This document shows, piece after piece, positions 21,983 through 41,905 of a DNA stretch of 64,000 nt. Under the pieces are notes generated by a model. That model searched no databases. It saw only the letters and a program-made list of their open reading frames with translations, and was not told the DNA's origin. The translations under genes and the position numbers were made by a program. Numbering within the stretch: position 1 is the stretch's first letter; each line of letters starts with the position of its first letter. The stretch lies in NCBI RefSeq assembly GCF_003116015.1, contig NZ_LGQZ01000085.1, positions 1 to 64,000 of the forward strand. The letters are read 5' to 3'. Source of the DNA: Azospirillum sp. TSO22-1 (GTDB taxonomy: Bacteria > Pseudomonadota > Alphaproteobacteria > Azospirillales > Azospirillaceae).

Positions 21983-22068
21983 GCCCCAGTGGCGAAATGG
22001 TAGACGCGGCAGACTCAAAATCTGTTGCCGGCAACGGCGTGCTGGTTCGAGTCCGGCCTGGGGCACCA
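21983..22068 (+). tRNA. tRNA-Leu (anticodon CAA)
   Basis: 86 nt including an encoded CCA. The acceptor stem pairs GCCCCAG (21983-21989) with CTGGGGC (22058-22064), discriminator A, then CCA. The anticodon loop is CTCAAAA with CAA at 22016-22018. A long class II variable arm (GTTGCCGGCAACGGC) and a T-arm with TTCGAGT follow. Its 3' portion is repeated at 40639-40695 and is the integration site of the element that begins here; the element supplies a 3' end that keeps the tRNA intact. Confidence 0.97.
22012..22068 (+). repeat. Left attachment repeat (within tRNA-Leu)
   Basis: Covers the anticodon loop to CCA of tRNA-Leu. Against 40639-40695 it shows 16 identical bases, a 10-base variable-arm segment with 4 differences, and 31 identical bases ending in CCA. 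Differences confined to the variable arm suggest that the element brought its own tRNA 3' end. Confidence 0.9.
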
Positions 22069-26138: not shown

Positions 26139-26570
26139 TTAGCGTGATTCCCGCATGTCATGATAATGGCCGAAAGCAGCATTCCTGACACGCCGAACGG
26201 CTTCATCTTCTGATACGTCGAAGATGTAAGCTGCCAAGCTGACCATGTCAGTACCTGCCGCACCACAGTCGGCATCTCCCCACTTGCCGGTCCTCAGATC
26301 AATCCTGAGTGAGCCAAAGCGCTGGTGGGGCGCCCGCGGATTGGACACAACGAACACATCGTCCAAAAAACATCCACCGGGCAGCCAGTCCAAAAGAAAA
26401 TCCTCAGCTTTTGCCAGCGCGCAAACGTTATCGTACAGACGATCGGATTCCGGGTTGCGCTTACGCCCGCGTCCCTGGCCTGGATAAGGGCGCGATCTAT
26501 CGGTCGAGTCGTAATAGCGCCTTCCGGGAGACGATGCGTTGCGGTTGAATGGAGGGTTGTCGTAGGGCAT
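26139..26570 (-). CDS. Small CHC2/primase-N-terminal-like protein
   Basis: 143 residues from the ATG at 26570. After an Asn/Arg/Pro-rich N-terminus, the C-terminal 75 residues read LLDWLPGGCFLDDVFVVSNP, then GSLRIDLRTGKWGDADCGA and GTDMVSLAAYIFDVSEDEAV. This is the pattern at the N-terminus of phage primase-helicases (zinc-ribbon-like: gsfkvnl-tGrW-D-a-g-kGgD-vsL-ayl). Here that domain is a stand-alone gene upstream of the SF3 helicase, so the primase-helicase appears split. Only two cysteines are visible, so zinc binding is uncertain. Confidence 0.7.
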   Translation of the reverse strand: MPYDNPPFNRNASSPGRRYYDSTDRSRPYPGQGRGRKRNPESDRLYDNVCALAKAEDFLLDWLPGGCFLDDVFVVSNPRAPHQRFGSLRIDLRTGKWGDADCGAAGTDMVSLAAYIFDVSEDEAVRRVRNAAFGHYHDMRESR

Positions 26571-26706
26571 AGTCAGTGGGCCTCGCGTGGCAAAACACGA
26601 CGTGATCCGTCGCAAGGCACAAATTGGACTCATGCTTTTTAATTGTCAAGCCGGTATTTCCAATGAAAAGCATTTTGACGCACGCTGGACCTGGGATGGG
26701 GTGAGA

Positions 26707-27780: not shown

Positions 27781-28118
27781 GCCCCATCTTCTGTCGCAGC
27801 CGGACGACGCACGAACAGTCGGCGCTTCTTGTCGAACACAGCTGAAGTCGGGGCGGCCATCGGCTGCTGCCGTGCTTGCACCGTATTCTGAAACAATTTG
27901 GCTGCGATGAACGCCTCTACATCAACCCGGCGGTAGCGTACCATCCGCGTGCCGAGCTTGACAAACACCGGCCCGGTGCCCTGCCTCCGCCAAGCCTCCA
28001 GGGTAGCCGGCGCAACCCCCAGCAAGATCGCCGCCGATTCGGGCGTCAGTAGGCCCTCCATCGTCCCGCCGCTCGTCGTGCTCGCCGCCGTCACGGCAGC
28101 ATCCGTCATGTCGGTCAT
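27774..28118 (-). CDS. AlpA/MerR-type helix-turn-helix protein (putative excisionase)
   Basis: 114 residues; ATG preceded by AGGAG at 7 nt. The segment LLTPESAAILLGVAPATLEA, followed by WRRQGTGPVFVKLG and RMVRYRRVDVEAFI, is the HTH_17 fold of AlpA-like regulators and excisionases. It is 47 nt upstream of nothing and downstream of the integrase on the same strand, and overlaps the 3' end of the UDG-like gene by 7 nt on the opposite strand. Such proteins steer integrase directionality or activate element genes. Confidence 0.85.
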   Translation of the reverse strand: MTDMTDAAVTAASTTSGGTMEGLLTPESAAILLGVAPATLEAWRRQGTGPVFVKLGTRMVRYRRVDVEAFIAAKLFQNTVQARQQPMAAPTSAVFDKKRRLFVRRPAATEDGAQ

Positions 28119-28165
28119 CGACGTTCTCCTCTGTATTGGAAAAAGAAAGGGGAGAGGCGCCGGGC

Positions 28166-29338
28166 TCAGGGCCCGGCCGCCTCGATAAGTTGCCCGACAA
28201 CGAGCCGCCCCGCAGCCTCCGACGCCCTCGCCAGCGTGTTGCCAGCCAAGTGCGCGTACCGCTGCGTCATCACCGGGGTGGAGTGGTTCAGGAGTTGCTG
28301 CACGACGAACAGGCTCTCGCCCGCGTTCACCAGCAGGCTGGCGTAGGTGTGCCGCAGGTCGTGCACACGGACGCCGCTCAGGCCCGCCCTCTGGCAGGCC
28401 CGCGCCCAGGTGTGCCGCACGGAACGGCGATGGGTGCCGGGCTTGTCACCGGGGAAGAGGTGCGGGTTGCCCTCCTCGCGCGGCAAGCTCTCCAACAGCG
28501 CCAACGCCGGGCCGCTCAGCGGCTTGAACTGCACGCGCCCGGACTTCGGGCGCGGCAGCCGCCACAGCCGTCCGCCCAGGTCCACCTCATCCCAGCGCGC
28601 CCGCGCCGCCTCGCCAAAGCGCGCGCCTGTCAGCAGGAGCAGCATCAGCAGTGCGGCGCCGATGCGGTCCCTCTCCTCGCCCAGCATGCGGACCAGCGCC
28701 TGGATCTGCTCCGGGGTGAGGTACGTGTGCCTCTGGTTGTTCTCCTTGAGCAGCTTGACGCCGAGCGTCGGCGAACGCTCGACTTCGCCCCACAGCACAG
28801 CCTTGGAGAACATGGTCTTCATCAGCGCCAAGTGACGGTTGGCCGTGGCCGGGGTGAGCCCCTCGGCCACGACGCCGTCGTGGATGCGCGTGATGTCGGA
28901 CGCCGTCACGTCCGCCAGCAGCTTGCGCCCGATCGCCGGCAGGATGCGCTTGTTCAGCAGCTTCTCGTCCTCGCGCCAGGAGCGCTTGCGCGCCCGCTGG
29001 TGCTCCATGAAGCGCACGGAGAACTCAGCGACCGTGAGCGCCTGACGGGCAGTGTCGCGCTCGGCGGCCGGGTCCTCACCGGCGGCGACCCGACCGCGCA
29101 GTTCCAGGGCCTTCTTACGGGCCTGATCGAGGGTCACATCCTGACCGTGCCGGCCGATCTTGACCATCCGGGTCTGCCCGGCGCGGTTCTTGAACTTGCA
29201 GTAGAAGGTGATGAGGCCCGTGCTGCGAACCTCGGCGACGAAGCCGGGCAAACGGGCGTCGTGGAGGACGAGCTTGGCCTTGCCGTCCGGCAGCGGCGGC
29301 GGCTCGGCCAGGATCTTGTTGGTGATCTGAAGTCTCAA
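28166..29338 (-). CDS. int: Tyrosine integrase of the element
   Basis: 390 residues from a TTG codon preceded by GGAGG at 5 nt; the conserved N-terminus begins there. It has a DUF4102-like arm-binding N-terminus (LPDGKAKLVLHDARLPGF), a SAM-like core-binding domain and a catalytic domain with all residues present: R240 (LLTGARFGE), H326 and R329 (HDLRHTYAS), H352 (LLNHSTPV) and Y361 (TQRYAHL). It should catalyse recombination at the tRNA-Leu site that bounds this element. Unusually it sits about 6 kb from the tRNA rather than adjacent to it. Confidence 0.95.
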   Translation of the reverse strand: MRLQITNKILAEPPPLPDGKAKLVLHDARLPGFVAEVRSTGLITFYCKFKNRAGQTRMVKIGRHGQDVTLDQARKKALELRGRVAAGEDPAAERDTARQALTVAEFSVRFMEHQRARKRSWREDEKLLNKRILPAIGRKLLADVTASDITRIHDGVVAEGLTPATANRHLALMKTMFSKAVLWGEVERSPTLGVKLLKENNQRHTYLTPEQIQALVRMLGEERDRIGAALLMLLLLTGARFGEAARARWDEVDLGGRLWRLPRPKSGRVQFKPLSGPALALLESLPREEGNPHLFPGDKPGTHRRSVRHTWARACQRAGLSGVRVHDLRHTYASLLVNAGESLFVVQQLLNHSTPVMTQRYAHLAGNTLARASEAAGRLVVGQLIEAAGP

Positions 29339-29435
29339 GCGGACCTCCGCGGGTGTGGATATGGGGCCGCGGAGTGCGCCGCAGCCCCGATGGGTTGTTC
29401 GGGCCGCAGCGGGCTTTGAACGGCGAAAGCGGACG

Positions 29436-29612
29436 TCAGCCGCCCTTGTTGACCACCACGTGGACGTGCACCTCCACGGGCGGGCTCCGCTGGGCGTCGG
29501 CGATCGCGACGGGCATCGGCGGGACGGAATGGGACGGTGCGCGACGCCCATCGACGACGGCGCGGACCAACTCGACGGCGATGGGCGCGAGCAGCGGGTT
29601 GAGGTTCAGCAT
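29436..29612 (-). CDS. Small element protein (58 aa), intact copy of a duplicated gene
   Basis: 58 residues (MLNLNPLLAPIAVELVRAVV at the start, VEVHVHVVVNKGG at the end). I do not recognise a family; the C-terminal strand VEVHVHVVV is striking. The start overlaps the stop of a 17-codon upstream ORF in the arrangement ATGCTGA. A diverged copy of the last 48 codons lies inverted at 34954-35100, with mostly synonymous or conservative changes, which argues that this frame is really translated. Confidence 0.6.
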   Translation of the reverse strand: MLNLNPLLAPIAVELVRAVVDGRRAPSHSVPPMPVAIADAQRSPPVEVHVHVVVNKGG

Positions 29613-29659
29613 GCGCGGCCCTCGCGCACCAGGGGCAGGGCACGGGACTTCAACTTCAT
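29606..29659 (-). CDS. 17-residue upstream ORF coupled to the small element protein
   Basis: Encodes MKLKSRALPLVREGRAC, preceded by CAGGAGACGTC with ideal spacing. Its TGA overlaps the ATG of the 58-residue gene by reading frame (ATGCTGA), so ribosomes leaving it could re-initiate there. It may be only a translational leader. It lies 39 nt after the stop of the 208-residue gene on the same strand. Confidence 0.45.
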   Translation of the reverse strand: MKLKSRALPLVREGRAC

Positions 29660-29698
29660 GACGTCTCCTGTTCGGTTGATGACGGTGAAGGGTGGTGG

Positions 29699-30325
29699 TC
29701 AGCACCGTTGAGGCGCATCAGCGCGTTCGGCTTCGGCGCGTGCCGCCTCGCAGCGGATTGCTTCGGCGAGATGGACGCGTAGGTGCACGAGGTGCCGGTC
29801 CTCCGGCAGCCTCGCCGTCGCGTCGGCGCACGCCTGCTCGCAGATGAGCAGGGCCTGCTCCACGGTGATGCCTTCAGAGCGGCCGGCAGGGTCGCGGCAG
29901 AGATCGAAGGCGTTATCGCCTGCCCACGCCCCGGCGAGCCGGTAAGGCCATTCCGGTGTCGGTTCGGCCTCTTCCAGGCCGAATCGGTCGTGACGCGGCA
30001 TGGCGGCGCGGCGGGCAAGTTCCTCCTCGATGCAGCGGCGCACCGACCCCTCCATGCGGTCGGCGAGCGAGCGTGGGCGCCGCACCGCTTCCTCGGCGGC
30101 ACGCCGGGCAACCACGTCGAGGAGATCGAGGAGGGTGAACCCCTCGGGCCCGGTGGCCTCGTCGAAGCGGACCAAGAAGGCGGCGCCGTCGCCGTAGATG
30201 TCGGCCATCACCGATGACCAGGGCAAGAGAGAGCCGGCCGGCAGGTCGGTGTCGGTGAACAGCAGGAAGCGCCCGTCGCTGGCGCGGCGCTCCGCGACAA
30301 TGGCGGCATCGTCGATGTCGATCAT
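29699..30325 (-). CDS. Hypothetical element protein (208 aa)
   Basis: 208 residues, acidic and largely helical, with GGAGGT 8 nt before the ATG. The N-terminal half (ERRASDGRFLLFTDTDLPAG, VMADIYGDGAAFLVRFD) looks like a small beta-rich domain; the rest is Glu/Arg/Ala-rich helices. No family recognised. It heads a short leftward group with the two small ORFs before the integrase. Its leader carries a palindromic element shared with the gene at 35166-35978. Confidence 0.6.
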   Translation of the reverse strand: MIDIDDAAIVAERRASDGRFLLFTDTDLPAGSLLPWSSVMADIYGDGAAFLVRFDEATGPEGFTLLDLLDVVARRAAEEAVRRPRSLADRMEGSVRRCIEEELARRAAMPRHDRFGLEEAEPTPEWPYRLAGAWAGDNAFDLCRDPAGRSEGITVEQALLICEQACADATARLPEDRHLVHLRVHLAEAIRCEAARAEAERADAPQRC

Positions 30326-30341
30326 GTCTCGTGACCTCCAT

Positions 30342-30406
30342 AAAGGCGAAGGGCCGTCCTGCAGCAGCAGGACGGCCCTGGATCACGCACATGAGATCTT
30401 CGCGAA
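30342..30406 (-). promoter_or_regulatory. Shared palindromic leader element, copy 1
   Basis: A 12-bp perfect hairpin (GGGCCGTCCTGC at 30351-30362 with its complement at 30367-30378, loop AGCA) and a conserved flank reading TCATGTGCGTGA on the minus strand. Exactly 25 nt separate the stem from the start codon of the 208-residue gene. Copy 2 lies at 35990-36057 with identical spacing to its own gene. It could be an RNA hairpin or an operator. Confidence 0.6.
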
Positions 30407-30780
30407 GGTGCTCCAGCTTACGGTCAATGCCTTTCACTCCTCTTCCGTTTGCGGTCTTGGACAGGGCAATGCATCCTCAATCCCTAGTTCGGTTCATTCC
30501 TGCGCCCCGCAAATTGCGCATTGCCTACGCGGCCTAACACGGCTGCGCGTATCAAACCGCTGCAATACATTTAAACATCAGCCTGATCTTGATGGGCCCG
30601 CCGCGTCGGTTAGGCGAAAGCGCCAATCACTCTACCAAATTGCTAGCCAAAGCCTTTACCGATCAGGTGCCCAGTGAGGGTTGTCGCCACATCATAATCC
30701 CTGGTTGCCACGGCTTCATCCAGGCTATACCATCCCATCCGCCCCTAGCCCAATCCACTCCAATTTGGCTCACAGTATCA
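30407..30780. promoter_or_regulatory. Divergent promoter region between the 208-aa gene and the NACHT gene
   Basis: About 375 nt that turn distinctly A+T-richer toward the NACHT gene. Divergent promoters are expected here, but I cannot place boxes with confidence. The frame upstream of the chosen NACHT start stays open but encodes an improbable peptide. Confidence 0.4.
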
Positions 30781-33700
30781 ATGACATACGACTTTTCGCG
30801 CTTTTCCCCACAGTCATTCGAGCGGTTTGCACAGTCCCTTGCTGCCGCCGAATTTGGTGGTCGCCTACAGATCTTCGGCGCGGGTCGCGACGGCGCCCGC
30901 GAAGCAACTTACGAAGGGCGCGTCCTAGTGGAGGATGGACGCGAGTGGAACGGATATGTGGTTGTCCAAGCTAAATATTTAGCAGACTCGACGACGCCAG
31001 CAGCGGACGCAACTTGGCTCATTTCACAAATTGACGATGAAATGGCGAAGTACGAAGATGCTAAGCGTGCGCTACGTCGTCCAGAATATTACCTACTGGT
31101 TACAAACGCCAAGTTAAGTGCATCCGCTGCTGACGCAACAGGTAAAGGGGCTGGCGGGATCGATAAGGTTGAAGCTCAACTTAAAACCTGGTCCGCCAAA
31201 CTTGGCATAAAGGGCGCGCATGTTTGGCACGCTGATTCATTGAGGATATTTCTTAACAACCACTCGGAATTGCGGACATATTTTAGCTTCTGGGTTCAGC
31301 CCGGAGACGTGCTTTCTGCACACCTGAAGCTCTTAGCTCAGCCCACGTTCGACGAAGTAATGCCGCGCGCAATTCGCAAGCAACTGCGCCGTGGGCGCGA
31401 TATTAAGACCAAAGATGCAGGCCAAGCTACTGGGAAATCTCTGCACATCGAGGACGTATTTGTAGATCTTCCATTAACAGATGATGTTTGGTTTTCCAAT
31501 ATTGATTTTGAGAACTTGGACATTACCTTTCACGAGGTGAGCACCGCCGATATAGTCGTTGAGGTTTCCTATAATGACCTAGAGGACTTCAGCGATGATG
31601 AATACGTTGACGATTCTGATTTCGAGCAAACGCAGACCAGCAATGTAACTGCACTTGTTTTTGAACATTGCGCGGACAGACTTGACCCATGGCAAACCGC
31701 AGATGGCAGCGATGATACACTATTTAAGGGCCGCATAGTGCTCCTGGGCGGACCGGGCCAAGGAAAATCAACTATCGGCCAATTCATCGCGCAACTCTGC
31801 CGTGCTCGACTCCTTGAGCAAATTGATGGTCCTGCTAACACATCTGAAATTCGGCAGATCGTTTCCAAGGTAATCAAGCGCGCAAGTGAGGAAGGAGTTT
31901 CAATTGGAGGTCCGGCGCGTTTCCCTTTCCAGGTTGAACTCCCTAGCTTTGCTGACAAACTCAGTGATTCAGTATCGGCTGGAAAAGAGTTGAGCATAAT
32001 TGAACATTTATCTTCACAGATGAGCGACGCCGGGGAGGCGCCTGTTTCAGTATCGTTGTTGCGCCAATGGTTGGCTGCAACACCAACAATTATAATTCTT
32101 GACGGGTTAGACGAAGTCCCACAGAGCGGAAATCGCACAGCTGTTATAACAGCAATAAATGACCTTGTAGATACAATCCAAGATATACGCGCAGACGCTC
32201 TTCTGCTCGTCACCAGCCGGCCACAAGGCTATGATCACGAACTCAGTCCAAGGTTCTGGTCCCATTGGAAAATGAAGGAGCTGGATACTACAAGCGCAAT
32301 GCGATTTGCAGAACGGTTAGCTCACGTACTAATATCAGACGATATCAGGCAGATGGAGGTGCTAGACAGCTTACGCTCAGCTGCAGCCGATCCGACAACC
32401 TCTCCTTTAATGATTAGCCCACTTCAAGTTGGATTGCTGTTTGCGCTCGTGGAAACGCGGAACAATATTCCGAAGGACAAATGGACGCTTTTCGAGAGGC
32501 ATTACGAGATCCTTCGTGATCGTGAAATCGCAAAGGGCGGATCGAACGGAAGGCTCATTGGTACATATAAGGCCGATATCGACCGCATCCATTTTGACGC
32601 AGGATACTTACTCCATGTGCGCGCCGAAGAGCCTGCTAATGCAAATGCTTTCCTGACACCCGAGGAATTTGCAGAACTCGTCAGAAGCCAGCTTGGTCGC
32701 AGTGGTCATGAGGACGTTACGGGTGCACTCGAGCGCGAAATTGTTTGGTTGGCAACCACGCGCCTCGTATTTTTGAGGTGCCATGTAGAAAAGCAGATTG
32801 GCTTTGACGTGCGCTCTCTGCAAGAATTCATGGCAGCAGCCCGGATAATGTCAAGCCCAGAGGAGCGCATCCGGGCTAGGCTCAAAGAAGTTGCCGGCAG
32901 AACGCACTGGCTTCATGTTTTCAAAATAGCATGCAGCAAGATATATTCTTCAGCTAGCTTGCTTGATTTCCACGGGGAGATATTGGGGATCCTCGACGCC
33001 CTCGATGCGGGTGACCGTGATGCTGATGATGCGCTGGTGCACAGCGGCGCAATGTTGGCAATGCAGATTCTTGCTGAGGGCATAGCTAGTTCGGCCCCCG
33101 CTCAGCGCCGGCTACTGGCGGCCAGAGCGATGCGCTTGCTTGACGTTAACCTCCCAAGTACAGCTCAGCAACTCGCTGATGTTATTGACGCTGGGGTAAC
33201 TGGAGCCGTAGAGCCCCAACTGCTGTTGGCACTGAGTGGCGGAGGGCATCCCGCAGTAGTGGCGATGAAAGTACTTCTTCACCTTAGTCACTCATCAGAC
33301 ACATTGGTGCGCAAATGGGCAATCTCTATCCTTGACCGTGCTTTGACATTTAGCAATAGCGAATTTCTAACCGCAATTGATGATCCACGACTGCTACCGA
33401 CCGCCCCGACACTTTCGCGTCACTTTATTGAGGCACAATGGCGCGCGGCGCCGGATGCACTGTGGCGGTGGAGTTCATTGCTTCGCCTTCGAAGCAAAGG
33501 AGACTCGCATTCCATTCTTCGTGACGACGAGAATGGCTATGCGATCTGCATCGTATCTACCTCTGATGGACGGCCTACCGATCTCACTCTGCGCTTTCGG
33601 TCGCTAAATGCAATGCTACACTTTGATCAACCGCCCGTTGGCGCACACCCTGCTTGGCCTTTCCTCAGAGCTGCAAGAGAATTCACAAACAATCCGAGCC

Positions 33701-34785
33701 AGGAGACTTTGGCCAATGCAATAGCTATTGCCGCAGATCCGGCAGTAAATGACGCCGTGCGGAACGTACCTCTGCCTTGGCCTATAGCAAATCTTATTCG
33801 TGGCGCGCTTCCGGAGGATATAATACGCCGCGCCGTGGAGGTGAGAGTCGGAAAGCATGGGGACGTAGAAGCTTGGCAAGCAGCTGAACGGCGGTGGGTC
33901 ACACAAGGCATAACTGCGGATGAACTAAACAATCTGAACAAGGATGGAATTGCCGCTGACATCGCCGTCTTTGGAGCGCCACCAACTGGCTCAATAAGAA
34001 AGGGGAGAAGCGGCGAAGCGGCGCTACCGGCCCTCCTTGAGCTGCGGCACTTATCTGATGGAAGCACTTCGCTCGATAGGTTCATCCTTGCCTGTATGGT
34101 TTGGGGAACTACCGCAGCAAAGCACCGTGATGAGGTGATTTTGTTTCTAGAATCCGCAGTCGCATCGAAACGAATTCCATCAAGTGAAATTCTCTCTCGA
34201 ATTCTATCTCTTCCACCAAATTTTCTGGACGACACGCGCATATCACATCTAATTCGGTCGCTTGCTTCCAACGCCGATCATACCGTTACAGCTCGCGCCG
34301 CTTCTTCGAGGGCGCTGATAACTATTTTCAACCTAGATCCATCCGCTAGATCTCTTTTACCGCTTCTGGCCTTGTCGGTAGGAAAGGCCTTTGGCCCTAA
34401 CACACAGCAACTTTCAAGGTTGGATGAAAGCGCGTTCAATACAACTCCATCAGATACTCCTTCTATCCGAGCGGCAACAATTGCTCTGGCAATGTGGACT
34501 GGCCAGTGGGACACTTCTCGCATCGACGACGCTGTTGAAGCTTTTACCCACTCGGAGGCCCGCTTTTCTGCCGTGTCCTTCGTAGAAGCTCTAGCCCAAA
34601 AAGGAGAGCGCGAATTCACGAGCCGGCTTGGCGCAGCCATCGGCCGAAAGTTGCTTTCCGCGCAAGGCGCAAGGTCTCCAGATGTATATCGGCTCATTCG
34701 GAAAAACGTTGAAGTGCAGCGTTCCGGATTGAGCAAAGCCGAGGTGGCAGACCATCTGAAACTCCCACGGAGGATAGGCACATAG
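30781..34785 (+). CDS. Mrr-like nuclease-NACHT STAND ATPase (probable anti-phage NLR-type protein)
   Basis: 1334 residues from the ATG at 30781 (no clear Shine-Dalgarno; the frame is open 64 codons upstream). The N-terminus is an Mrr-type PD-(D/E)xK nuclease: helix SFERFAQSLAAAEFGG with E14, GAGRDG with D37, and VVVQAKY with Q63 and K65. A NACHT P-loop domain follows: Walker A LLGGPGQGKST at 321-331, Walker B IIILDGLDEVP with D441, D444 and E445, and the TSRPQGY sensor near 480. About 850 residues of HEAT/TPR-like helices complete it. Bacterial Avs and bNACHT defence proteins have this effector-NTPase-sensor plan; a defence role is inferred. Codon use is A+T-richer than the flanks, indicating transfer. 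Confidence 0.85.
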   Translation: MTYDFSRFSPQSFERFAQSLAAAEFGGRLQIFGAGRDGAREATYEGRVLVEDGREWNGYVVVQAKYLADSTTPAADATWLISQIDDEMAKYEDAKRALRRPEYYLLVTNAKLSASAADATGKGAGGIDKVEAQLKTWSAKLGIKGAHVWHADSLRIFLNNHSELRTYFSFWVQPGDVLSAHLKLLAQPTFDEVMPRAIRKQLRRGRDIKTKDAGQATGKSLHIEDVFVDLPLTDDVWFSNIDFENLDITFHEVSTADIVVEVSYNDLEDFSDDEYVDDSDFEQTQTSNVTALVFEHCADRLDPWQTADGSDDTLFKGRIVLLGGPGQGKSTIGQFIAQLCRARLLEQIDGPANTSEIRQIVSKVIKRASEEGVSIGGPARFPFQVELPSFADKLSDSVSAGKELSIIEHLSSQMSDAGEAPVSVSLLRQWLAATPTIIILDGLDEVPQSGNRTAVITAINDLVDTIQDIRADALLLVTSRPQGYDHELSPRFWSHWKMKELDTTSAMRFAERLAHVLISDDIRQMEVLDSLRSAAADPTTSPLMISPLQVGLLFALVETRNNIPKDKWTLFERHYEILRDREIAKGGSNGRLIGTYKADIDRIHFDAGYLLHVRAEEPANANAFLTPEEFAELVRSQLGRSGHEDVTGALEREIVWLATTRLVFLRCHVEKQIGFDVRSLQEFMAAARIMSSPEERIRARLKEVAGRTHWLHVFKIACSKIYSSASLLDFHGEILGILDALDAGDRDADDALVHSGAMLAMQILAEGIASSAPAQRRLLAARAMRLLDVNLPSTAQQLADVIDAGVTGAVEPQLLLALSGGGHPAVVAMKVLLHLSHSSDTLVRKWAISILDRALTFSNSEFLTAIDDPRLLPTAPTLSRHFIEAQWRAAPDALWRWSSLLRLRSKGDSHSILRDDENGYAICIVSTSDGRPTDLTLRFRSLNAMLHFDQPPVGAHPAWPFLRAAREFTNNPSQETLANAIAIAADPAVNDAVRNVPLPWPIANLIRGALPEDIIRRAVEVRVGKHGDVEAWQAAERRWVTQGITADELNNLNKDGIAADIAVFGAPPTGSIRKGRSGEAALPALLELRHLSDGSTSLDRFILACMVWGTTAAKHRDEVILFLESAVASKRIPSSEILSRILSLPPNFLDDTRISHLIRSLASNADHTVTARAASSRALITIFNLDPSARSLLPLLALSVGKAFGPNTQQLSRLDESAFNTTPSDTPSIRAATIALAMWTGQWDTSRIDDAVEAFTHSEARFSAVSFVEALAQKGEREFTSRLGAAIGRKLLSAQGARSPDVYRLIRKNVEVQRSGLSKAEVADHLKLPRRIGT

Positions 34786-34953
34786 GCGAGCCTCTGGTGT
34801 GATAATTCAGAACGGATGCTACAACTGATGGCAGAGTGAGAGGTTCGGCAACCGAGGTACAGCCGATCCTCTCGTTGAATCTGTGCAACCTCCCCGCCCA
34901 GTCCTCCCCGCCTCCAGATGGGACCGACTGGCACGTGCCGGTCACATCGGGGT

Positions 34954-35110
34954 ATCGCCGTCGAGCTGGTCCGCGCCGTCGTCGATGGGCGTCGCGCACC
35001 GTCCCATCCTGTCCTGCCAGTGCCCGTCGCGATCGTCAACGCCCAGCGGAGCCCGCCCGTGGAGGTGCACGTCCACGTGGTGGTCAACAGGGGCGGCTGA
35101 CGCCCGCTTT
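34954..35110 (+). pseudogene. Inverted, 5'-truncated duplicate of the 58-aa gene
   Basis: Encodes IAVELVRAVVDGRRAPSHPV and ends VEVHVHVVVNRGG before the same TGA context as the gene at 29436-29612. The similarity runs from the ATCGCCGTCGAG block to about 10 nt past the stop. The first ten codons of the original are missing and the upstream sequence is unrelated. The copies are in opposite orientation and flank the integrase-side/NACHT segment. An upstream in-frame ATG at 34918 could still allow translation. Confidence 0.65.
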
Positions 35111-35165
35111 CACGGTGCCCGCTTCACACAGGTGCTCGAATCCCCCCAACTATTGACCGCTAACG

Positions 35166-35978
35166 TCACCGGCTTTCAGATAGACGACAAGGGTAACTTG
35201 CGACGATGAAGGGTTCCCGCCACTCCTTCCAGAACTGGTCGTAGTATCTGATCTTCTTGATATCCGCGATGGCACCGGACACGGTGACCTGCTGTCCCTG
35301 GCTGAGGCGCGATGCCGAAGCAAGATCGATGTAGCAGACGACGCGGGCCTTCTCGCCCCACATCAGGGCGTTGAAGTTGCGTCCACCATCAAGCGGCCCG
35401 ATGAGCACGCCAGCAAAGCGCTCCCCCCGATCGTTGGCTTCGACGTTGATCTCCGCCACCCTCCCCGGCAGCGCAAAGCCCGCCCCACTCCCATAAAGCG
35501 CCAGCGCGCGGGCTTGATTGCTGGCAACCAATTGGCCCAGTTCCTCCAGCGTCGTCGGCTGCGCCACGGCCGCTTGAGGAGCGCCGATGTCGATGGGATC
35601 GTTGGTCATCACGAGGCCAGGATCGACCCCGGTCTTCCCGTTCGCCCATTTGACCGTCAACCCCTTCTCCGCCGAGAAGGCAGACGGTGACTTGAGAACG
35701 CCATCCACCGTCACCTTGGTCTTCTGCGTGATGAGGACATCGACATCGCGCATGAAGTACATCGGGGCGTCTTCACCGTCATCCAGCACCTTCACGACGC
35801 CCTTCGCGTCGGCGCGGTCGAGGCAGTAGATGCCCCCGACGCCGGCCGGACACGCGACGAGCGTGCCGCTCAACGACACCGTCTGCTCTGCCAACGCCGG
35901 GCTGCCCCCGATGGCGCCGATCACAGCGATGGCCTGCATGGCGCATCGCGAGACCTTCGTTACAGCCGTTTCGTACAT
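35166..35978 (-). CDS. Exported hypothetical protein with OB-fold-like domain
   Basis: 270 residues; AAGGAGGT lies directly before the ATG. A signal peptide ends at SPALA (about residue 31). Two related segments follow; the second, LPGRVAEINVEANDRGERFA ... ARVVCYIDLASASRLSQGQQ ... VTVSGAIADI, has the shape of tRNA_anti-like OB-fold domains found in periplasmic proteins. No catalytic motif. Its leader carries copy 2 of the palindromic element. Two other small leftward genes lie upstream and may be co-transcribed. Confidence 0.65.
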   Translation of the reverse strand: MYETAVTKVSRCAMQAIAVIGAIGGSPALAEQTVSLSGTLVACPAGVGGIYCLDRADAKGVVKVLDDGEDAPMYFMRDVDVLITQKTKVTVDGVLKSPSAFSAEKGLTVKWANGKTGVDPGLVMTNDPIDIGAPQAAVAQPTTLEELGQLVASNQARALALYGSGAGFALPGRVAEINVEANDRGERFAGVLIGPLDGGRNFNALMWGEKARVVCYIDLASASRLSQGQQVTVSGAIADIKKIRYYDQFWKEWREPFIVASYPCRLSESR

Positions 35979-35989
35979 ATCGACCTCCT

Positions 35990-36057
35990 TGAAGCATGAC
36001 GAAGGCCGTCCCGCGGCAGCGGGACGGCCCTGTTCACGCACATGACATCCTCGCCGG
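35990..36057 (-). promoter_or_regulatory. Shared palindromic leader element, copy 2
   Basis: An 11-bp perfect hairpin (GGCCGTCCCGC at 36004-36014 with its complement at 36019-36029, loop GGCA) with the TCATGTGCGTGA flank, 25 nt before the start at 35978. Relative to copy 1 a T-A pair in the stem is replaced by C-G on both arms, so pairing is preserved. Confidence 0.6.
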
Positions 36058-36105
36058 GGCGGCCTGGCTTGCGGCGACATCCCCGGCGCAGGCAGCCTCG
36101 CACGA

Positions 36106-36582
36106 TCAGACCTCCACCTCGGCGGACTCGATGAGCTTGATGCAGACGTCGAAGCAGTCATCGACGTGCTGGTTGCCCACGTACTTCATCGCACCGAAGC
36201 CGATCGCCGCAGACACCGCGTTGCCGACGATGGGAACGAACTTGGCGGCCTGCTTGACGGCGACCCGCCCGGCGACACCCTTGAGGACCTGAAGGACGAG
36301 TTGCTTCGTCACAACCTTTCCGGCCAAGCCCATGCCGGTCTTCTTGATCATGGCGTAGACGACGGCTTTGAGCGACGGCGGCAAGCCGTCGATCTGCTCG
36401 GGCGACAGCTCGAACCGGCGGTTGATCTCTGGGATCATCTCCAAGAGGATGGCAACGTCGGCGATGGCGTCGGGGCCGGGCACCGGGATGGCTGAAGCGC
36501 CACCGGAAACCAAGGCGCGCTTGGTGACCATCTCCTTGCACTCGTCCCTGACGCGCTCCGCGTCTCTACGGGTCTTCAGCAT
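36106..36582 (-). CDS. Hypothetical protein with DUF697-like hydrophobic helices
   Basis: 158 residues. After a charged N-terminal helix comes SGGASAIPVPGPDAIADVAI followed by LLEMIPEINRRFELSPEQID, a pattern reminiscent of DUF697-type regions seen behind dynamin-like GTPases. Two glycine-rich amphipathic or membrane helices follow (GMGLAGKVVTKQLVL and AAIGFGAMKYVG). It may insert in or associate with the membrane. No GTPase partner is nearby. It lies between two genes for exported proteins on the same strand. Confidence 0.55.
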   Translation of the reverse strand: MLKTRRDAERVRDECKEMVTKRALVSGGASAIPVPGPDAIADVAILLEMIPEINRRFELSPEQIDGLPPSLKAVVYAMIKKTGMGLAGKVVTKQLVLQVLKGVAGRVAVKQAAKFVPIVGNAVSAAIGFGAMKYVGNQHVDDCFDVCIKLIESAEVEV

Positions 36583-36652
36583 TCTTCGTCCATGTCGTGG
36601 GGCAAGGGGGCGGGCTCATGCCCGTAGAGCGAATCGAGGCGCCGGGCACGCC

Positions 36653-37045
36653 TCACTTGCCGCAGGGGTTCGTCTGCATCCGGGTGAACCAGGGCCGCAC
36701 AGCCGCCTCCTGCTCGGGCGTAGCCCGCTGCCCCTTGGTCAGGGCGGTCAACTTCTCCCCATATGGCTTCGCCGCCAAGTTCGCCTGCTCCTCGCGGCGC
36801 TGGGCATCGGCCAAGCGGTCTTTGATGGTGGTGATTTGCTCATAAGCGCCTTGGCCCGTCGCGCTTGCTCGTTGCACGTCGTCCATGGCCTTGAACTTGT
36901 CGGCCTGGGCTTTCTTGGCCTCGCAGGCGTGGGGCAGTATGCCCTTGATGGCGGCGATCATGTCGTCGCTCGTTTTATCGGCACGGGCGCCAGCCGGCAG
37001 GGCGAGCAGCGCCACCACCAGGGCAGCAAATCCTCTCTTGAGCAC
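36653..37045 (-). CDS. Small exported hypothetical protein
   Basis: 130 residues from a GTG preceded by AGGAGG at 6 nt. A signal peptide (LKRGFAALVVALLALPAGARA) is followed by a mature helical domain with two cysteines, one near the N-terminus (LPHACEAKK) and one at the end (QTNPCGK), which could form a disulfide. The middle is a long charged coiled-coil-like helix. No family recognised. It is the first gene of the leftward trio 37045-35166. Confidence 0.6.
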   Translation of the reverse strand: MLKRGFAALVVALLALPAGARADKTSDDMIAAIKGILPHACEAKKAQADKFKAMDDVQRASATGQGAYEQITTIKDRLADAQRREEQANLAAKPYGEKLTALTKGQRATPEQEAAVRPWFTRMQTNPCGK

Positions 37046-37262
37046 GATGTTCCTCCTCTCGCGGATGTGGCCGATGGCCGGCCTCCGCCTGCCACGCCCC
37101 CTTGGACGCCGGCTGGGCGGTGCCGATGCGCTGGTCGAAGCGAATCCGCGCGCTTGCACTTGACCGGCCGCTCTCAACCCCATATTGCGCCTTTCAGCCT
37201 TAACACGCAACTACGGCTCATGGTCGGAGACCGTCTCCCGCACTGACAATGCGGGCCGAGCC

Positions 37263-37613
37263 ATGGACTTGAAGATTCACATAGGGGCGCGGGTGAAGGC
37301 GGCGCGGCAGCGCAAGGGCATCACCCAGGAGCAGCTCGCCGAGGCAGTCGATAAGGCGGTCGAGACGATCTCCAACATCGAGCGCGGCGCGATGCTGACC
37401 GGCATCGACACCCTCCAGCGCATCGCCGCCGCGCTGGACGCGCCCATGACCTACTTCTTCGAGGGAGCCGGGGACGAACGGCCGATCAGTCGCGCCCGCC
37501 TGGAAGCCGAATTGCGGCTTCAGGCGATCGGCCAGCACTTGCCGGCCAAAGACCTGCACCTTGCCATTGCCCTGCTTGAGACGCTGGAGAGCTACCGGGA
37601 AGAAACGAAGTAG
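37263..37613 (+). CDS. XRE-family transcriptional repressor
   Basis: 116 residues. A canonical Cro/C1-type helix-turn-helix occupies residues 6-60 (VKAARQRKGITQEQLAEAVD then ISNIERGAMLTGIDTLQRIA). A short C-terminal helix probably dimerises. It is divergent from the exported-protein genes, with 217 nt between the starts, and is a good candidate for the element's lysogeny-type regulator or the regulator of the neighbouring accessory genes. Confidence 0.85.
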   Translation: MDLKIHIGARVKAARQRKGITQEQLAEAVDKAVETISNIERGAMLTGIDTLQRIAAALDAPMTYFFEGAGDERPISRARLEAELRLQAIGQHLPAKDLHLAIALLETLESYREETK

Positions 37614-37818
37614 AGGGGCAGCATCCGGGCGCTTTCGCGCTGGATCCCCGCTATAGCGCTATGTCTTGATCAGCATGCGCATCAGCATGGAACTGGGGTC
37701 TCGTACGGATACACACTATGGCCTCCTCCATCTCTCGTCCCCGCTGTCCGGGTTAGGCCGGCTGATGGGGACGGAGATCGCCCTTGAACAAGCATACCTC
37801 GGTTGCTACATAAGCCAA

Positions 37819-38162
37819 TGAACAACGAGCTCGGGCAAAAAGCCAAGCAAGTTGCTAAGAGCAGCAATCGTGGCGTGGCTGGTACTGCACCCCGTAAATC
37901 CCACCGTAACGGTAACGTTGAACGTGGAGGTTCACATGGAAGCAGCAAACAACATCAGTCACGTCTCCAAGGGGGTTGCTAATGAAGAACGGTCGGAGCA
38001 ACGCAATGAGCGTTCAGAAACAATCGCCAAGGAACGTGGGGAAGCACGCGGTGCCATGGGACCGGGAAGGTAGTGCCAGCTACGTCGCGAGTAAGTGATA
38101 GCAGAACAGCTTGGTGGCCGAGGAACACCGCAAGGAGGGTTCGACTCCCTCCTCCCATACCA
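37819..38162 (+). ncRNA. Putative RNA of about 340 nt with a tRNA-like 3' end
   Basis: The 3' end is a canonical tRNA half: T-stem GAGGG/CCCTC (38135-38139 and 38147-38151) around the loop TTCGACT, a 7-nt acceptor strand CTCCCAT, discriminator A and CCA ending at 38162, then an intrinsic terminator. A possible promoter (TTGAAC, 17 nt, TACATA at 37807-37812) would start the RNA near 37819. The best 5' acceptor partner is ATGGGAC at 38056-38062 (6 of 7 pairs), which would give a 107-nt tRNA-like unit. No normal D-arm or anticodon arm could be drawn. The 5' end is a guess. Confidence 0.4.
37936..38073 (+). CDS. Possible small protein (45 aa)
   Basis: 45 residues starting MEAANNISHVSKGVANEERS, a highly charged helix, ending GAMGPGR. 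GGAGG lies 5 nt before the ATG. Two other short ORFs (37818-37982 and 37982-38098, joined by TAATG) overlap it in other frames without ribosome-binding sites. It may be a genuine small gene, or a chance frame inside the putative RNA. Confidence 0.35.
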   Translation: MEAANNISHVSKGVANEERSEQRNERSETIAKERGEARGAMGPGR

Positions 38163-38167
38163 ATTTG

Positions 38168-38196
38168 AAACGCCCGGTGTAAGCGCCGGGCGTTTT
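38168..38196. terminator. Bidirectional intrinsic terminator
   Basis: A 9-bp stem AACGCCCGG/CCGGGCGTT (38169-38177 and 38186-38194) followed by TTTT on the + strand and by GTTTC on the other. It separates the CCA-ended RNA from the convergent GHKL-nuclease gene. Confidence 0.85.
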
Positions 38197-38219
38197 CATA
38201 TCAATTAGCCTGCATACTT

Positions 38220-40241
38220 TTAGTTTTCCGCAGGATCGCCCACAGCCCCCACTAGCAACTCCGCTTCGGAATGGTCACTTTCTACCACGACGCCGTCCAA
38301 CAACGCCGCATGTTCCTTCCGCAGATAGCGCATCGCGTGCTCATCGTTGGCGGTAAAATTTAACTTTTCCTGGATAAACTGGTATCGTGCCTTGCACTCC
38401 TCGATGAGTTGTCTCCAGGTCTTTACGTATATCTTCGCAGTCGGCGTATCCCGCACCAACCCCCGGCCCGTTGAGTCCTTCTTTACCTCATACGCTCCGT
38501 AGCTATCGAGCTTGTCCGAGATCACCCAAAAATGCCACACGATGCCGTCGCGCATAGCAAACCGACCATCGCTCTCAATGGAACTGGCATATTTCGTTAT
38601 TTGCGTGATCTCGTCCGCACCAACGTCTACGCCCGGACGCTTCAATTCGACGACAAGGTGCTCGACCTCATCCGCCCGATGGCGCCGCAGAAGTCTGGAA
38701 AGCATCAGATCGACGATGCCGGTGGACTGGTCGATATGCTTGACCGGCACGTCGATGACAATGTCGTCGTCGAGATGCTTCTTGTGCGCCCGCAGAACCG
38801 CCGTTAGGTCGCGGTCGTCGGTTGAGACCATGAACTCTTCGCCGAAGATCCAGGGGTTTATAGCCAAGATCCGGTGGAGTTGTCTGCGTTCTTTGATGCG
38901 GCCGTGCTTCTCATACTCGTAGACGATCTGATAAAGGCCACGCAGGAATTTGAGGCGATCCGTGACTATTTTTGCGGCGCCGATGATCGAGGAGAGGGTA
39001 GTTTCTTCCAACAGCTTCGAAAGATCATCCTGCTCTCGCTTAGGCAACTCAATTACCTTCGAGAGGAGATCTCGGAGATGATTGGGGCCGGTCTCGATGG
39101 CGTGCCGCAGCAATTCTAGCTGGAGTGCCTTCGCCACCTTGGGGGCGGCGGTTAGCTCGGTATACGCAGTATGGATCTTGACCGCGACGATCTCGAAGAC
39201 TTTCCGCTCGGCCTCCTCGATAGTGGTCTTCGGTGCATCCTCGTACGGATAGATCTTTGCCGCCTTCCATTCCTGGATAAGACGAGCCGCCTCTTTCTTG
39301 TCCTCGCCCTCGTAATGCTCCTTGATGGTATCTTTGGATACATGGATGATCAGTTCGGCAAGTGGATCAAGATCGGTCAGGGCAAGCCTATTCTCCTGCT
39401 CCAATTGGTCTAGGTATGGAGAGGTGAGGTACGCCGAGAAGGAGTGCTTCTTGAGCTGAAATTTGGTGGATACCTGCTGTACGGCGAAGCCGCGGGCGTC
39501 GCAGATAAAGAGGCTGCGGCGGTCAACATGCCGCCACTCCAGCACACGAAGTTCACTCTCGGGCGCACGCTCTCCGCTTGGCAGCATGACATCCGGAACT
39601 CGAAGCTTAAACTGCTTCTGAATGGCGTTTGTAACTTCAAGCTGCTTCTCAGCGAACACCACCTTCACATCGGGATAGTCCGCCAAGTAGATGGCTAGCA
39701 GCTCGGTCAACTCCTGTGCCGATTCGTTTCCCTCAAGGTTCTTGAACTGCTTGTGCGGATCGCGAATTTGCACAATACAACCGGTTGCCGTGTGCTTGGA
39801 CGGCTGGGCGTCGGAGATGCGCACCTGAGAAGGATCGGTACTGAGGATCTCGACGGTGAATTCGGAGATGCCGTTCCCATCCTCAAAGAAGAGCTTCCAC
39901 GTCACGGACCGGCCGATCGACAGGGACTTGTAGCGTCCCTGCCCCTGGTTGCCGTGCAGTACCCGCTGGTGCTTTTTCGTCCGAGCCCCTGGCCGCTTCC
40001 ATGAGCCGCCCAGCTTGCCGAAATACTCCTGTGCCTCAGTTGGCGTCATGCCGAGGCCGTTGTCCTCAACGATGATGCCTTTGAGCCCCATCTGATCGCG
40101 GTCGAAGTATACAACAACCTCCTCCGCGTCGGCGTCCAGACTATTCCAGACCAACTCGCCGATCGCGCTCAGCGGCCGGGCGCGCGCGATTCGCATGAAC
40201 GTGTCAGCCTGCGCGACGACTTTGATATGAGCTGTGGCCAC
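38220..40241 (-). CDS. GHKL ATPase fused to a Shedu-like PD-(D/E)xK nuclease (candidate defence system)
   Basis: 673 residues from a GTG with GGAG 6 nt upstream. The N-terminus is an Hsp90/MutL/MORC-type GHKL ATPase: LSAIGELVWNSLDADAEE supplies E29, N33 and D36; EDNGLGMT supplies D60-x-G-x-G64; HGNQGQGRYKSLSIG is the lid/G2 motif. A middle region of helices follows. The C-terminal 180 residues hold a nuclease: GIVDLML with D511, HLVVELKRPG with E532 and K534, and EITQITKYA, the D ... E-x-K ... Q-x3-Y layout of Shedu (DUF4263)-type enzymes. ATP-gated DNA cleavage against phage or plasmid DNA is the inferred role. It is single and A+T-rich, and lies next to the attachment repeat. Confidence 0.8.
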   Translation of the reverse strand: MATAHIKVVAQADTFMRIARARPLSAIGELVWNSLDADAEEVVVYFDRDQMGLKGIIVEDNGLGMTPTEAQEYFGKLGGSWKRPGARTKKHQRVLHGNQGQGRYKSLSIGRSVTWKLFFEDGNGISEFTVEILSTDPSQVRISDAQPSKHTATGCIVQIRDPHKQFKNLEGNESAQELTELLAIYLADYPDVKVVFAEKQLEVTNAIQKQFKLRVPDVMLPSGERAPESELRVLEWRHVDRRSLFICDARGFAVQQVSTKFQLKKHSFSAYLTSPYLDQLEQENRLALTDLDPLAELIIHVSKDTIKEHYEGEDKKEAARLIQEWKAAKIYPYEDAPKTTIEEAERKVFEIVAVKIHTAYTELTAAPKVAKALQLELLRHAIETGPNHLRDLLSKVIELPKREQDDLSKLLEETTLSSIIGAAKIVTDRLKFLRGLYQIVYEYEKHGRIKERRQLHRILAINPWIFGEEFMVSTDDRDLTAVLRAHKKHLDDDIVIDVPVKHIDQSTGIVDLMLSRLLRRHRADEVEHLVVELKRPGVDVGADEITQITKYASSIESDGRFAMRDGIVWHFWVISDKLDSYGAYEVKKDSTGRGLVRDTPTAKIYVKTWRQLIEECKARYQFIQEKLNFTANDEHAMRYLRKEHAALLDGVVVESDHSEAELLVGAVGDPAEN

Positions 40242-40638
40242 GACCTTCTCCGCCCCCCAAGCGATGCCGATTTAAGCGGGCTGCGAGAGTGTCTGAGCTC
40301 TGCGCGGTTGTCAATTTTGCTATGGTTGTCGTTCAACACGATCACCACAGGTTTAATGCACACATCATAAGTTGAGGCGCTTGATTCTCTGGATGAATCC
40401 TACACTCCTGCCCTGCCTACCCCTTCGGCCTGATTCGCGCCATTTACGAGATCGCGCCGAACAACGAGCAGCTCACCTCGGCAGTTCGCCGGCCTGTCGA
40501 GAGGTGCGCCTCCTCCCCTCCGCATCCTCCCCTGTGCCCGCCGGCATCAACGGGACCGTGCGGGTCACAGCGGTGCAGCGCCGAAGCGCCGCATGATGTG
40601 AGCGGGCCTCCGCCGGCATGTTCTGCCTTCGTTCCCAG
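40242..40638. promoter_or_regulatory. Upstream region of the GHKL-nuclease gene to the right end of the element
   Basis: About 400 nt. The first 150 nt are A+T-rich and should hold the promoter of the leftward GHKL gene; TTGACA occurs on the minus strand near 40314 but a matching -10 box is not clear. The remainder, up to the attachment repeat, has no credible gene. Confidence 0.4.
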
Positions 40639-40695
40639 GACTCAAAATCTGTTGGCCGCAAGGTCGTGCTGGTTCGAGTCCGGCCTGGGGCACCA
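40639..40695 (+). repeat. Right attachment repeat (displaced tRNA-Leu 3' fragment)
   Basis: 57 bases from the anticodon loop to CCA of tRNA-Leu, without any tRNA 5' half upstream, so it is not a functional gene. It matches 22012-22068 at 53 of 57 positions. It marks the right junction of the element; flanking core genes resume immediately after it. Confidence 0.9.
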
Positions 40696-40718
40696 CTCTC
40701 CTTCTGCAGCTGCCGCGC

Positions 40719-41735
<1,017 letters not shown>

Positions 41736-41905
41736 GCGGAGTTCTCACCACCTGAGGAGTCGGGGTTGGCGTCCGCCATCACTTAGGCCCGCCCGCCCGC
41801 TTCGCCAACCGGGCGGCGGGGAGCGCTGGGTTGCGTCGGTTGCCCCTTGAAGGGCGCGCGCGAACCGGACACCTTCTTCATCCTCGACCACCCGAAGAGG
41901 TACCC

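What the first reader, a model, noticed from the sequence alone, without database searches (positions are those of the whole stretch)
38220..40241. Single-gene GHKL ATPase-PD-(D/E)xK nuclease at the edge of an integrative element
Seen: an N-terminal GHKL ATPase with E29, N33, D36 and D60-x-G-x-G64, and a C-terminal D511 ... E532-x-K534 plus a Q/Y helix of Shedu type. Known: GHKL ATPases of MutL/MORC type occur with restriction systems, and Shedu (DUF4263) is an anti-phage nuclease. I do not know a named system joining the two in one chain. It stands alone, is A+T-rich, and lies next to the attachment site, a usual place for cargo defence genes. It is the best candidate here for an undescribed system.
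Basis: partly seen in the sequence, partly recalled or inferred. Interest (0 to 1): 0.82.

Follow-up and report, generated by a model that had tools for sequence, protein, structure and literature searches.

The report
ATP-gated Shedu-like anti-phage nuclease gene
A single mobile bacterial gene fuses an ATP-driven DNA clamp to a DNA-cutting domain; it is most likely a virus-defence gene, and since a gene of the same design was named and tested in 2025 it is a new member of a known kind rather than a new kind.

Summary
In detail: window 38220-40241 (-) encodes a 673-aa protein with an N-terminal GHKL ATPase and a C-terminal PD-(D/E)xK nuclease. AlphaFold models are good (pLDDT 88.7 whole, 88.1 nuclease alone). 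Residues 9-318 match MORC modules (Z about 20). The nuclease resembles EndoMS/NucS (Z 9.1) and E. coli/B. cereus Shedu (7.6/7.5); by profile comparison it is nearer SduA (92-93%) than NucS (10-21%). The gene lies 0.4 kb inside the right end of an 18.7-kb tRNA-Leu island and was found in none of the 44 other genomes of the genus searched.

The claim that it is undescribed fails: paraMORC3 (2008) has this architecture, and VcSduA (V. cholerae, 2025), a GHKL-Shedu fusion, blocks phage and needs both active sites. VcSduA's sequence was not in hand, so direct kinship is untested; Pfam SduA_C does not hit our protein.

New support for defence: a DNA search with the Salmonella member found relatives in 11 of 5,426 E. 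coli genomes, all between psu and the integrase of a P4-like satellite, a published antiviral hotspot (one lineage). The family is widespread and mobile, mostly labelled 'ATP-binding protein' or PHROG_6203 'unknown'. Anti-phage function of this gene is inferred, not shown.

The parts
38220..40241 (-). 673-aa GHKL ATPase - PD-(D/E)xK nuclease, single gene
39288..40217 (-). residues 9-318: GHKL ATPase plus following (S5/transducer-type) module, MORC-like
   Evidence: Pfam HATPase_c_3 E 9.2e-15; VIA-align Z 20.3 to mouse MORC3 5ix2_B, rmsd 4.0 over 279 residues
40134..40157 (-). GHKL motif I: E29, N33, D36
40050..40064 (-). GHKL motif II: D60-x-G62-x-G64
38361..38906 (-). residues 446-627: PD-(D/E)xK nuclease domain
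   Evidence: model of 446-673 pLDDT 88.1; Z 9.1 EndoMS/NucS, 7.6 EcSduA; hhalign to SduA 91.8-93.0%
38889..38891 (-). E451, first acidic residue of the E-D-ExK motif
   Evidence: invariant 15/15, 77/77
38640..38711 (-). D511 ... E532-x-K534 nuclease motif
38589..38603 (-). Q547/Y551 helix
   Evidence: Q 76/77, Y 77/77
21983..22068 (+). tRNA-Leu(CAA), attL of the island
   Evidence: ARAGORN; Rfam tRNA 57.4 bits
40639..40695 (+). 57-nt copy of the tRNA-Leu 3' part, attR of the island
   Evidence: 93% identity to 22012-22068
28166..29551 (-). tyrosine integrase with Arm-DNA-bind_3, the island's likely integrase
   Evidence: Phage_integrase E 1.1e-25

Best explanation
It is a horizontally acquired, single-protein anti-phage nuclease of the paraMORC3 / GHKL-Shedu type. 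Shown by sequence and model: a MORC-like GHKL ATPase with its motif residues, a helical middle region and a PD-(D/E)xK nuclease with its motif residues in one chain, carried as cargo near the end of a tRNA-Leu island. Inferred: ATP binding brings two N-terminal domains together into a clamp on DNA, as in other GHKL+S5 proteins; the clamp holds the C-terminal nuclease inactive until it meets invading DNA (ends, replication intermediates or another phage-specific state); the nuclease then nicks or cuts that DNA, and the cell survives (direct restriction, as reported for VcSduA). No cognate methylase is needed.
For: Both active sites conserved. MORC3/MORC2/MORC4 fill ranks 1-11 of the structural comparison, Z 20.3-18.4, residues 9-about 318. 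Nuclease kinship to SduA: 91.8% (81 columns) and 93.0% (145 columns) in the two directions, against 0.0-0.4% in 9 controls (two reversed alignments, the family's own GHKL domain, six column shuffles) and 10.5-20.8% for five actinobacterial NucS proteins. Same-architecture VcSduA restricts T1-like phages and X29; E27A or K557A abolishes its activity (PMC12137116 section 12 and passages). Mobility: 1 of 45 genomes of the genus at E 1e-10, its own; nearest kin are Caulobacter and Microvirga, 68-70%; on 46 of 72,556 plasmid records, 2 of 50,697 phage records and 61 IMG/VR loci, some of them distant or partial. In E. coli a DNA search with the Salmonella member found it in 11 of 5,426 genomes, in 11 of 11 between psu and the integrase, the locus that Rousset et al. 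2022 describe as an antiviral hotspot (PMC9122126 passages). No conserved partner: the largest cluster among the neighbours (5 ORFs each side) occurs in 21 of 135 loci, 20 of them phage contigs.
Against: No assay on this gene or, that I know of, on any close relative. Pfam SduA_C (PF14082) is not listed for any of 15 members at E up to 10, while HSDR_N_2 is weakly listed for 15 of 15; PADLOC SduA was hit by 1 of 15 (E 0.02). By structural Z the nuclease is slightly nearer EndoMS/NucS (9.1, 106 residues) than EcSduA (7.6, 142 residues), and Shedu is not in Foldseek's own top 50. The 11 E. coli copies are nearly identical, so they count as one event. Some relatives adjoin restriction-modification genes.
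Confidence: 0.75

Rival explanations
1. It is a subunit of a restriction-modification system: the GHKL part loops or remodels DNA and the nuclease cuts unmodified DNA, with methylation supplied by a neighbour or an unlinked gene.
For: Iyer et al. 2008 place MORC/paraMORC proteins mainly in R-M operons. In Phaeobacter the gene overlaps by 4 bp the end of a type ISP restriction/modification gene. Recurring N6-methylase-like neighbours (named by eye) occur in 8 of 135 loci and HsdR-like ones in 5 of 135.
Against: None of the 10 island proteins scanned hits a methylase or SF2-helicase Pfam model; recurring methylase neighbours are a small minority (methylases outside the recurring clusters were not counted); the phage and satellite copies opened show none beside the gene.
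Confidence: 0.12
2. It is a repair enzyme, a one-chain MutL-like ATPase with an EndoMS-like nuclease that acts on mismatches.
For: N-terminus hits MutL models (TIGR00585 E 1.3e-9); the closest nuclease folds by Z are EndoMS/NucS; Iyer et al. allowed a repair role for versions in non-R-M contexts.
Against: Patchy: 1 of 45 genomes of the genus; carried by phages, plasmids and satellites; MutL DQHA motif in 0 of 77 members; TIGR00585 score 37.5 bits against a cut-off of 180; profile match to NucS weak.
Confidence: 0.05
3. It serves the mobile element itself: exclusion of competing plasmids or satellites rather than phage defence of the host.
For: The gene is often element-borne; GHKL clamps can act on DNA topology (recalled for topoisomerases and MORC).
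Against: The tested protein of the same architecture acts on phages; systems tested from the psu-int hotspot give phage defence (passages). The two roles do not exclude each other.
Confidence: 0.08

Closest known systems
VcSduA, V. cholerae Shedu with N-terminal GHKL ATPase (type I-D Shedu), PMC12137116
   Same: Single protein; GHKL with a catalytic glutamate near residue 27-29; middle region between the two domains; C-terminal PD-(D/E)xK with catalytic lysine; carried on a genomic island.
   Different: Lysine at 557 rather than 534; its nuclease is assigned to DUF4263 by the authors, ours is not hit by that Pfam model; sequence kinship not measured here.
paraMORC3 of Iyer, Abhiman and Aravind 2008 (PMC2292703)
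   Same: GHKL + S5 + C-terminal restriction-endonuclease fold with E-D-ExK; lacks the MORC-specific motif; a subset stand-alone; laterally mobile.
   Different: No feature tested here differs; their member list (supplement) was not seen.
Classical Shedu nucleases: EcSduA (8ps4), B. cereus SduA (8ti9)
   Same: Nuclease fold (Z 7.6 and 7.5) and the W-x-F-G, D, E-x-K, Q motif order in the profile alignment.
   Different: The seven Vibrio SduA proteins compared are shorter (228-459 aa) and show no GHKL motif by pattern (not scanned with Pfam); EcSduA has a DNA-end-binding N-terminal clamp (review passage).
PHROG_6203 (phage protein family, unknown function)
   Same: Nearly full-length match, residues 24-635, E 1.1e-64.
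   Different: No function is assigned to it in PHROGs.
MORC2/MORC3 ATPases
   Same: GHKL plus following module, Z about 20.
   Different: The MORC S5 motif is present in 0 of 77 members; eukaryotic MORCs carry no nuclease domain (recalled).
EndoMS/NucS mismatch endonuclease
   Same: Nuclease core fold, Z 9.1 over 106 residues.
   Different: No GHKL (recalled); weak profile similarity (10.5-20.8%).
BbrUII/HgiDII type II restriction enzymes
   Same: N-terminal GHKL-like region (NF050001, 51 bits, best stretch residues 27-114).
   Different: Far below the 550-bit cut-off; no methylase found among the island proteins scanned.

Membership tests
GHKL-Shedu (VcSduA, Shedu type I-D) | N-terminal GHKL ATPase with its motifs | tested here: met
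   Pfam PF13589 E 9.2e-15; motif residues invariant 15/15
GHKL-Shedu (VcSduA, Shedu type I-D) | C-terminal DUF4263/SduA_C nuclease domain | tested here: inconclusive
   Pfam SduA_C listed for 0 of 15 members; PADLOC SduA for 1 of 15 at E 0.02; but profile-profile 91.8-93.0% with clean controls and fold Z 7.6
GHKL-Shedu (VcSduA, Shedu type I-D) | Catalytic Glu of GHKL and Lys of PD-(D/E)xK present | tested here: met
   E29 and K534
GHKL-Shedu (VcSduA, Shedu type I-D) | Sequence homology to VcSduA itself | not tested
   VcSduA sequence not in the collections reached; 227 Vibrio genomes gave 12 matches to most of the family profile, none with E-K spacing 530 where both were placed
GHKL-Shedu (VcSduA, Shedu type I-D) | Anti-phage activity needing both active sites | not testable with these tools
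   needs plaque assays
paraMORC3 | GHKL + S5 + C-terminal RE-fold with E-D-ExK | tested here: met
   fold match over 9-about 318 to MORC ATPase modules, which include the S5 domain (recalled); E451, D511, E532, K534; nuclease fold
paraMORC3 | Lacks the MORC-specific S5 motif | tested here: met
   motif in 0 of 77 members
paraMORC3 | Stand-alone or R-M linked, laterally mobile | tested here: met
MORC (prokaryotic) | GhXhhpXXRhl motif in S5 | tested here: not met
   0 of 77
MutL endonuclease | C-terminal endonuclease motif beginning DQHA (motif recalled) | tested here: not met
   0 of 77 contain DQHA
BbrUII/HgiDII type II restriction enzyme | NCBIfam NF050001 above 550 bits | tested here: not met
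   51.1 bits
EndoMS/NucS | Profile kinship of the nuclease domain | tested here: inconclusive
   10.5-20.8% against five closely related NucS proteins; fold Z 9.1

The most novel reading that the evidence does not exclude
The family (PHROG_6203-like) is a separate class of ATP-dependent defence nuclease, not merely VcSduA again: a MORC-style clamp closes topologically on DNA and licenses the nuclease by the state of the DNA (linear, uncoated or replicating) instead of by DNA ends held in a Shedu clamp. The same gene class would then be shared by chromosomal islands, plasmids, temperate phages and P4 satellites, and would link the evolution of MORC chromatin clamps to phage defence.
Probability: 0.2. 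Interest if true: 0.62.

Novelty: new member of a known kind. Interest (0 to 1): 0.36.

Why it matters
It points to a widespread family of GHKL-nuclease defence proteins that standard labels miss: the annotated relatives opened or listed are mostly called 'ATP-binding protein' or 'hypothetical protein', PADLOC gives only weak type II restriction-enzyme hits on the GHKL part, no NCBIfam model passes its cut-off, and PHROGs says 'unknown function'. The E. coli satellite copy gives a convenient laboratory handle on how a MORC-type ATPase can gate a nuclease, a question open for VcSduA as well.

Tried and rejected
Pfam and PADLOC scans for a direct SduA/DUF4263 label: none for the window protein. 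PDB sequence search with the nuclease alignment A3: no match up to E 10. Foldseek alone did not list Shedu in its top 50; Shedu appeared in the VIA-align second look. HSDR_N_2 as a rival label for the nuclease: weakly listed for all 15 members (window 15.6 bits against a cut-off of 25; best member E 1.7e-5). I tried to build an HsdR control: the search of 21 genomes gave two loci, but the only ORF my script compared lies outside the HSDR match, so its 0.2% says nothing and that control failed. The single-sequence comparison with the NACHT protein's N-terminus (0.4%) is likewise too weak a test.

Finding VcSduA itself: Pfam SduA_C in 148 Vibrio genomes gave 12 hits, in open frames of 266-542 aa, none long enough for this fusion; A1 in 227 Vibrio genomes gave 27 genomes with a match, 12 matches covering most of the model. 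Gu et al. 2025 was not held and Loeff et al. 2025 was not looked up; both are known here through citing passages.

Empty-site test: the right flank (40696-41800) is found in other genomes of the genus, but the 11 loci from other genomes have no tRNA within them; in one of nine left-flank loci homology runs up to exactly the tRNA end, but the DNA beyond does not match the right flank. No empty site was shown.

First genome-contig scan with the single protein found no relative; the alignment-based scan found 509, of which only the best 80 were returned. In one search, 98 of 398 genomes match, but most matches cover only about residues 21-110 and are probably MutL or other GHKL proteins (not tested).

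Papers: PMC2292703 main text read whole (supplement not seen); PMC12137116 section 12 and passages; PMC12409362, PMC12904381, PMC12839542, PMC7824862 and PMC9122126 passages only, supplements not seen, so Rousset's system tables may hold this gene unnamed; others listing only. That I met no further named system of this architecture rests on searches in an open-licence library.

Full report
What is there. Window 38220-40241 on the minus strand is one open frame of 673 codons. The N-terminus matches Pfam HATPase_c_3 (E 9.2e-15, residues 25-134). In alignment A1 (the window and 14 of the relatives then in hand, found by tblastn or genome search) the two active sites are invariant: E29, N33, D36, D60, G62, G64, G97, G100, G102 and E451, D511, E532, K534, with Q547 and Y551. 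In A2 (the window and 76 of the 141 loci, chosen by me for full length and spread) the nuclease residues E451, D511, E532, K534 and Y551 are again 77/77 and Q547 76/77; the GHKL residues there are partly so by construction, because most loci were fetched by a GHKL motif.

Structure. The AlphaFold model made with A2 has mean pLDDT 88.7 and pTM 0.61. VIA-align puts residues 9-about 318 on MORC3, MORC2 and MORC4, which fill ranks 1-11 (Z 20.3-18.4, rmsd 3.8-4.6 A, 268-291 residues), just ahead of TRAP1/Hsp90 (Z 18.1 and less). The nuclease region predicted alone (residues 446-673) has pLDDT 88.1 and pTM 0.83. Its best matches are EndoMS/NucS (2vld Z 9.1, 2.3 A, 106 residues; 5gke Z 9.0), AF1548 (Z 8.7), E. 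coli SduA 8ps4 (Z 7.6, 3.7 A, 142 residues) and B. cereus Shedu 8ti9 (Z 7.5, 129 residues). These lie near the level at which Z alone is not decisive.

Is the nuclease Shedu-like? Seven Vibrio SduA_C proteins (of the 12 loci found) were aligned as A4. hhalign of A3 (77 nuclease regions) with A4 gives 91.8% over 81 columns, and 93.0% over 145 columns in the other direction; nine controls (two reversed alignments, the family's GHKL domain, six column shuffles) give 0.0-0.4%. Five actinobacterial NucS proteins give 10.5 and 20.8%, with the caveat that those five are close relatives and make a poorer profile. Against this, Pfam SduA_C is not listed for any of 15 members at E up to 10 (HMMER's filters drop most matches above 0.1), while HSDR_N_2 is weakly listed for all 15. 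I therefore call it Shedu-like, not a formal SduA_C member.

Island. tRNA-Leu(CAA) lies at 21983-22068; its last 57 nt recur at 40639-40695 with 93% identity. The island is 18.7 kb (22012-40695). It holds a tyrosine integrase (28166-29551), a DUF5906 protein, a UDG-superfamily protein, a NACHT-domain protein, an HTH protein and the gene studied. Island GC is 60.4%, the gene 56.1%, the rest of the window 70.6%. No empty site was seen in relatives. Of 33 plasmid records sharing DNA with window 41000-64000, 20 are Azospirillum; that the host is Azospirillum is an inference.

Mobility and spread. The gene was found in 1 of 45 genomes of the genus, its own (E 1e-10). Its nearest relatives are from two Caulobacter and one Microvirga, 70, 69 and 68% identical, joined to it with SH-aLRT 100 in a quick tree. 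Relatives: 509 of 530 candidate stretches in genome contigs (84,980 genomes; one motif; only the best 80 were returned and seen), 61 loci in IMG/VR, some distant or partial, 46 of 72,556 plasmid records, 36 of them over at least 80% of the query, 2 of 50,697 phage records. On the 77-row tree, 56 rows with a phylum label need 17 changes for 13 groups, against a least possible 12 and a shuffled mean of 22.7: clustered by phylum, with some changes that may be transfer.

Neighbours. In 135 of the 141 loci, with 5 ORFs taken on each side, the largest neighbour cluster is seen in 21, of which 20 are phage contigs; N6-methylase-like proteins recur in 8, integrase-like in 8, HsdR-like in 5 (names by eye). 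I opened 12 of the 48 plasmid and phage hits (one record has no annotation there): the gene overlaps an ISP-type R-M gene in Phaeobacter, sits beside an LlaMI-type R-M pair and near Drt2 in Psychrobacter, near an abortive-infection gene in Bradyrhizobium and about 1.5 kb from a DNA methyltransferase in Deinococcus. In two Pasteurella phages it lies among tail genes.

The most telling context came from E. coli. A DNA search with the Salmonella member found it in 11 of 5,426 complete E. coli genomes; more distant E. coli members were not sought. The E. coli protein is 35.5% identical to the window protein and has all 15 catalytic or motif residues checked. All 11 were opened: in 11 of 11 it lies between the polarity-suppression gene and the integrase, with ssrA shown beyond the integrase in 10 of 11. 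That is the P4-satellite psu-int locus which Rousset et al. 2022 describe as a reservoir of antiviral systems (PMC9122126, passages). The 11 copies are 97.8-97.9% identical to the query and to be counted as one lineage. 'GHKL', 'HATPase' and 'ATP-binding' have 0 occurrences in that paper's main text; its supplementary tables were not seen.

Comparison with the known. VcSduA has the same order of domains, protects against T1-like phages and X29, and loses activity with E27A or K557A; its authors read the growth curves as direct restriction (PMC12137116 section 12; passages). They equate such proteins with paraMORC3 and with Shedu type I-D. Iyer et al. 2008 defined paraMORC3 by GHKL + S5 + RE-fold nuclease with E-D-ExK and noted stand-alone members. 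The window protein meets each of those features, and lacks the MORC motif (0 of 77). Whether it is homologous to VcSduA along its whole length was not tested; VcSduA's E-K spacing of 530 is longer than the 496-521 seen in 140 profile hits.

How it likely works. Shown: conserved ATPase and nuclease sites, MORC-like and Shedu/EndoMS-like predicted folds, element-borne, no fixed partner. Inferred from GHKL+S5 proteins and from VcSduA: ATP-driven dimer clamp, control of the nuclease by the clamp, cutting of invading DNA with survival of the cell. Unknown: the trigger and how self DNA is spared.

Verdict. A sound observation and a probable defence gene; the architecture is already published. New here are the family's breadth, its place in the P4 satellite hotspot, its match to PHROG_6203, and its distance from the formal SduA_C model.

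Noticed in passing
window 30589-34785 (+): Large NACHT/STAND-type protein (NACHT E 4.3e-6) whose residues 65-183 match the N-termini of PADLOC models named Aga_REase-TIR and similar (best E 1e-8): a likely second, NLR-like defence gene on the same island.
   Followed up: partly
window 29425-29582 and 34954-35111: A 158-bp inverted repeat, 93.7% identical, flanks the NACHT gene; origin unknown.
   Followed up: no
window 38129-38162 (+): A sequence that looks by eye like the 3' part of another tRNA (T arm, acceptor, CCA), right beside the gene; no other copy with up to 3 mismatches in the genome. It may be the scar of an older or nested integration.
   Followed up: partly
window 28166-29551 (-): The island's integrase lies 6 kb from attL and 11 kb from attR, not next to either end, which suggests a composite island.
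   Followed up: no
window 26587-27780 (+) and 24048-25805 (-): UDG-superfamily protein and DUF5906 protein on the island.
   Followed up: no
L246 8001-9986 and 10 similar E. coli loci: Family member in the psu-int slot of P4-like satellites, 11 of 11, ssrA shown in 10; annotated only 'ATP-binding protein'.
   Followed up: yes
L022 1076-7989: In Phaeobacter pGal_E78 the family gene overlaps by 4 bp a type ISP restriction/modification gene, as in a coupled operon.
   Followed up: no
loci among L152-L169: A distant clade (about 20% identical to the window protein) on phage contigs, with a recurring short downstream gene in 12 loci.
   Followed up: partly
window 30347-30403 and 36000-36054: A pair of imperfect direct repeats (86%) on either side of the NACHT gene.
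   Followed up: no
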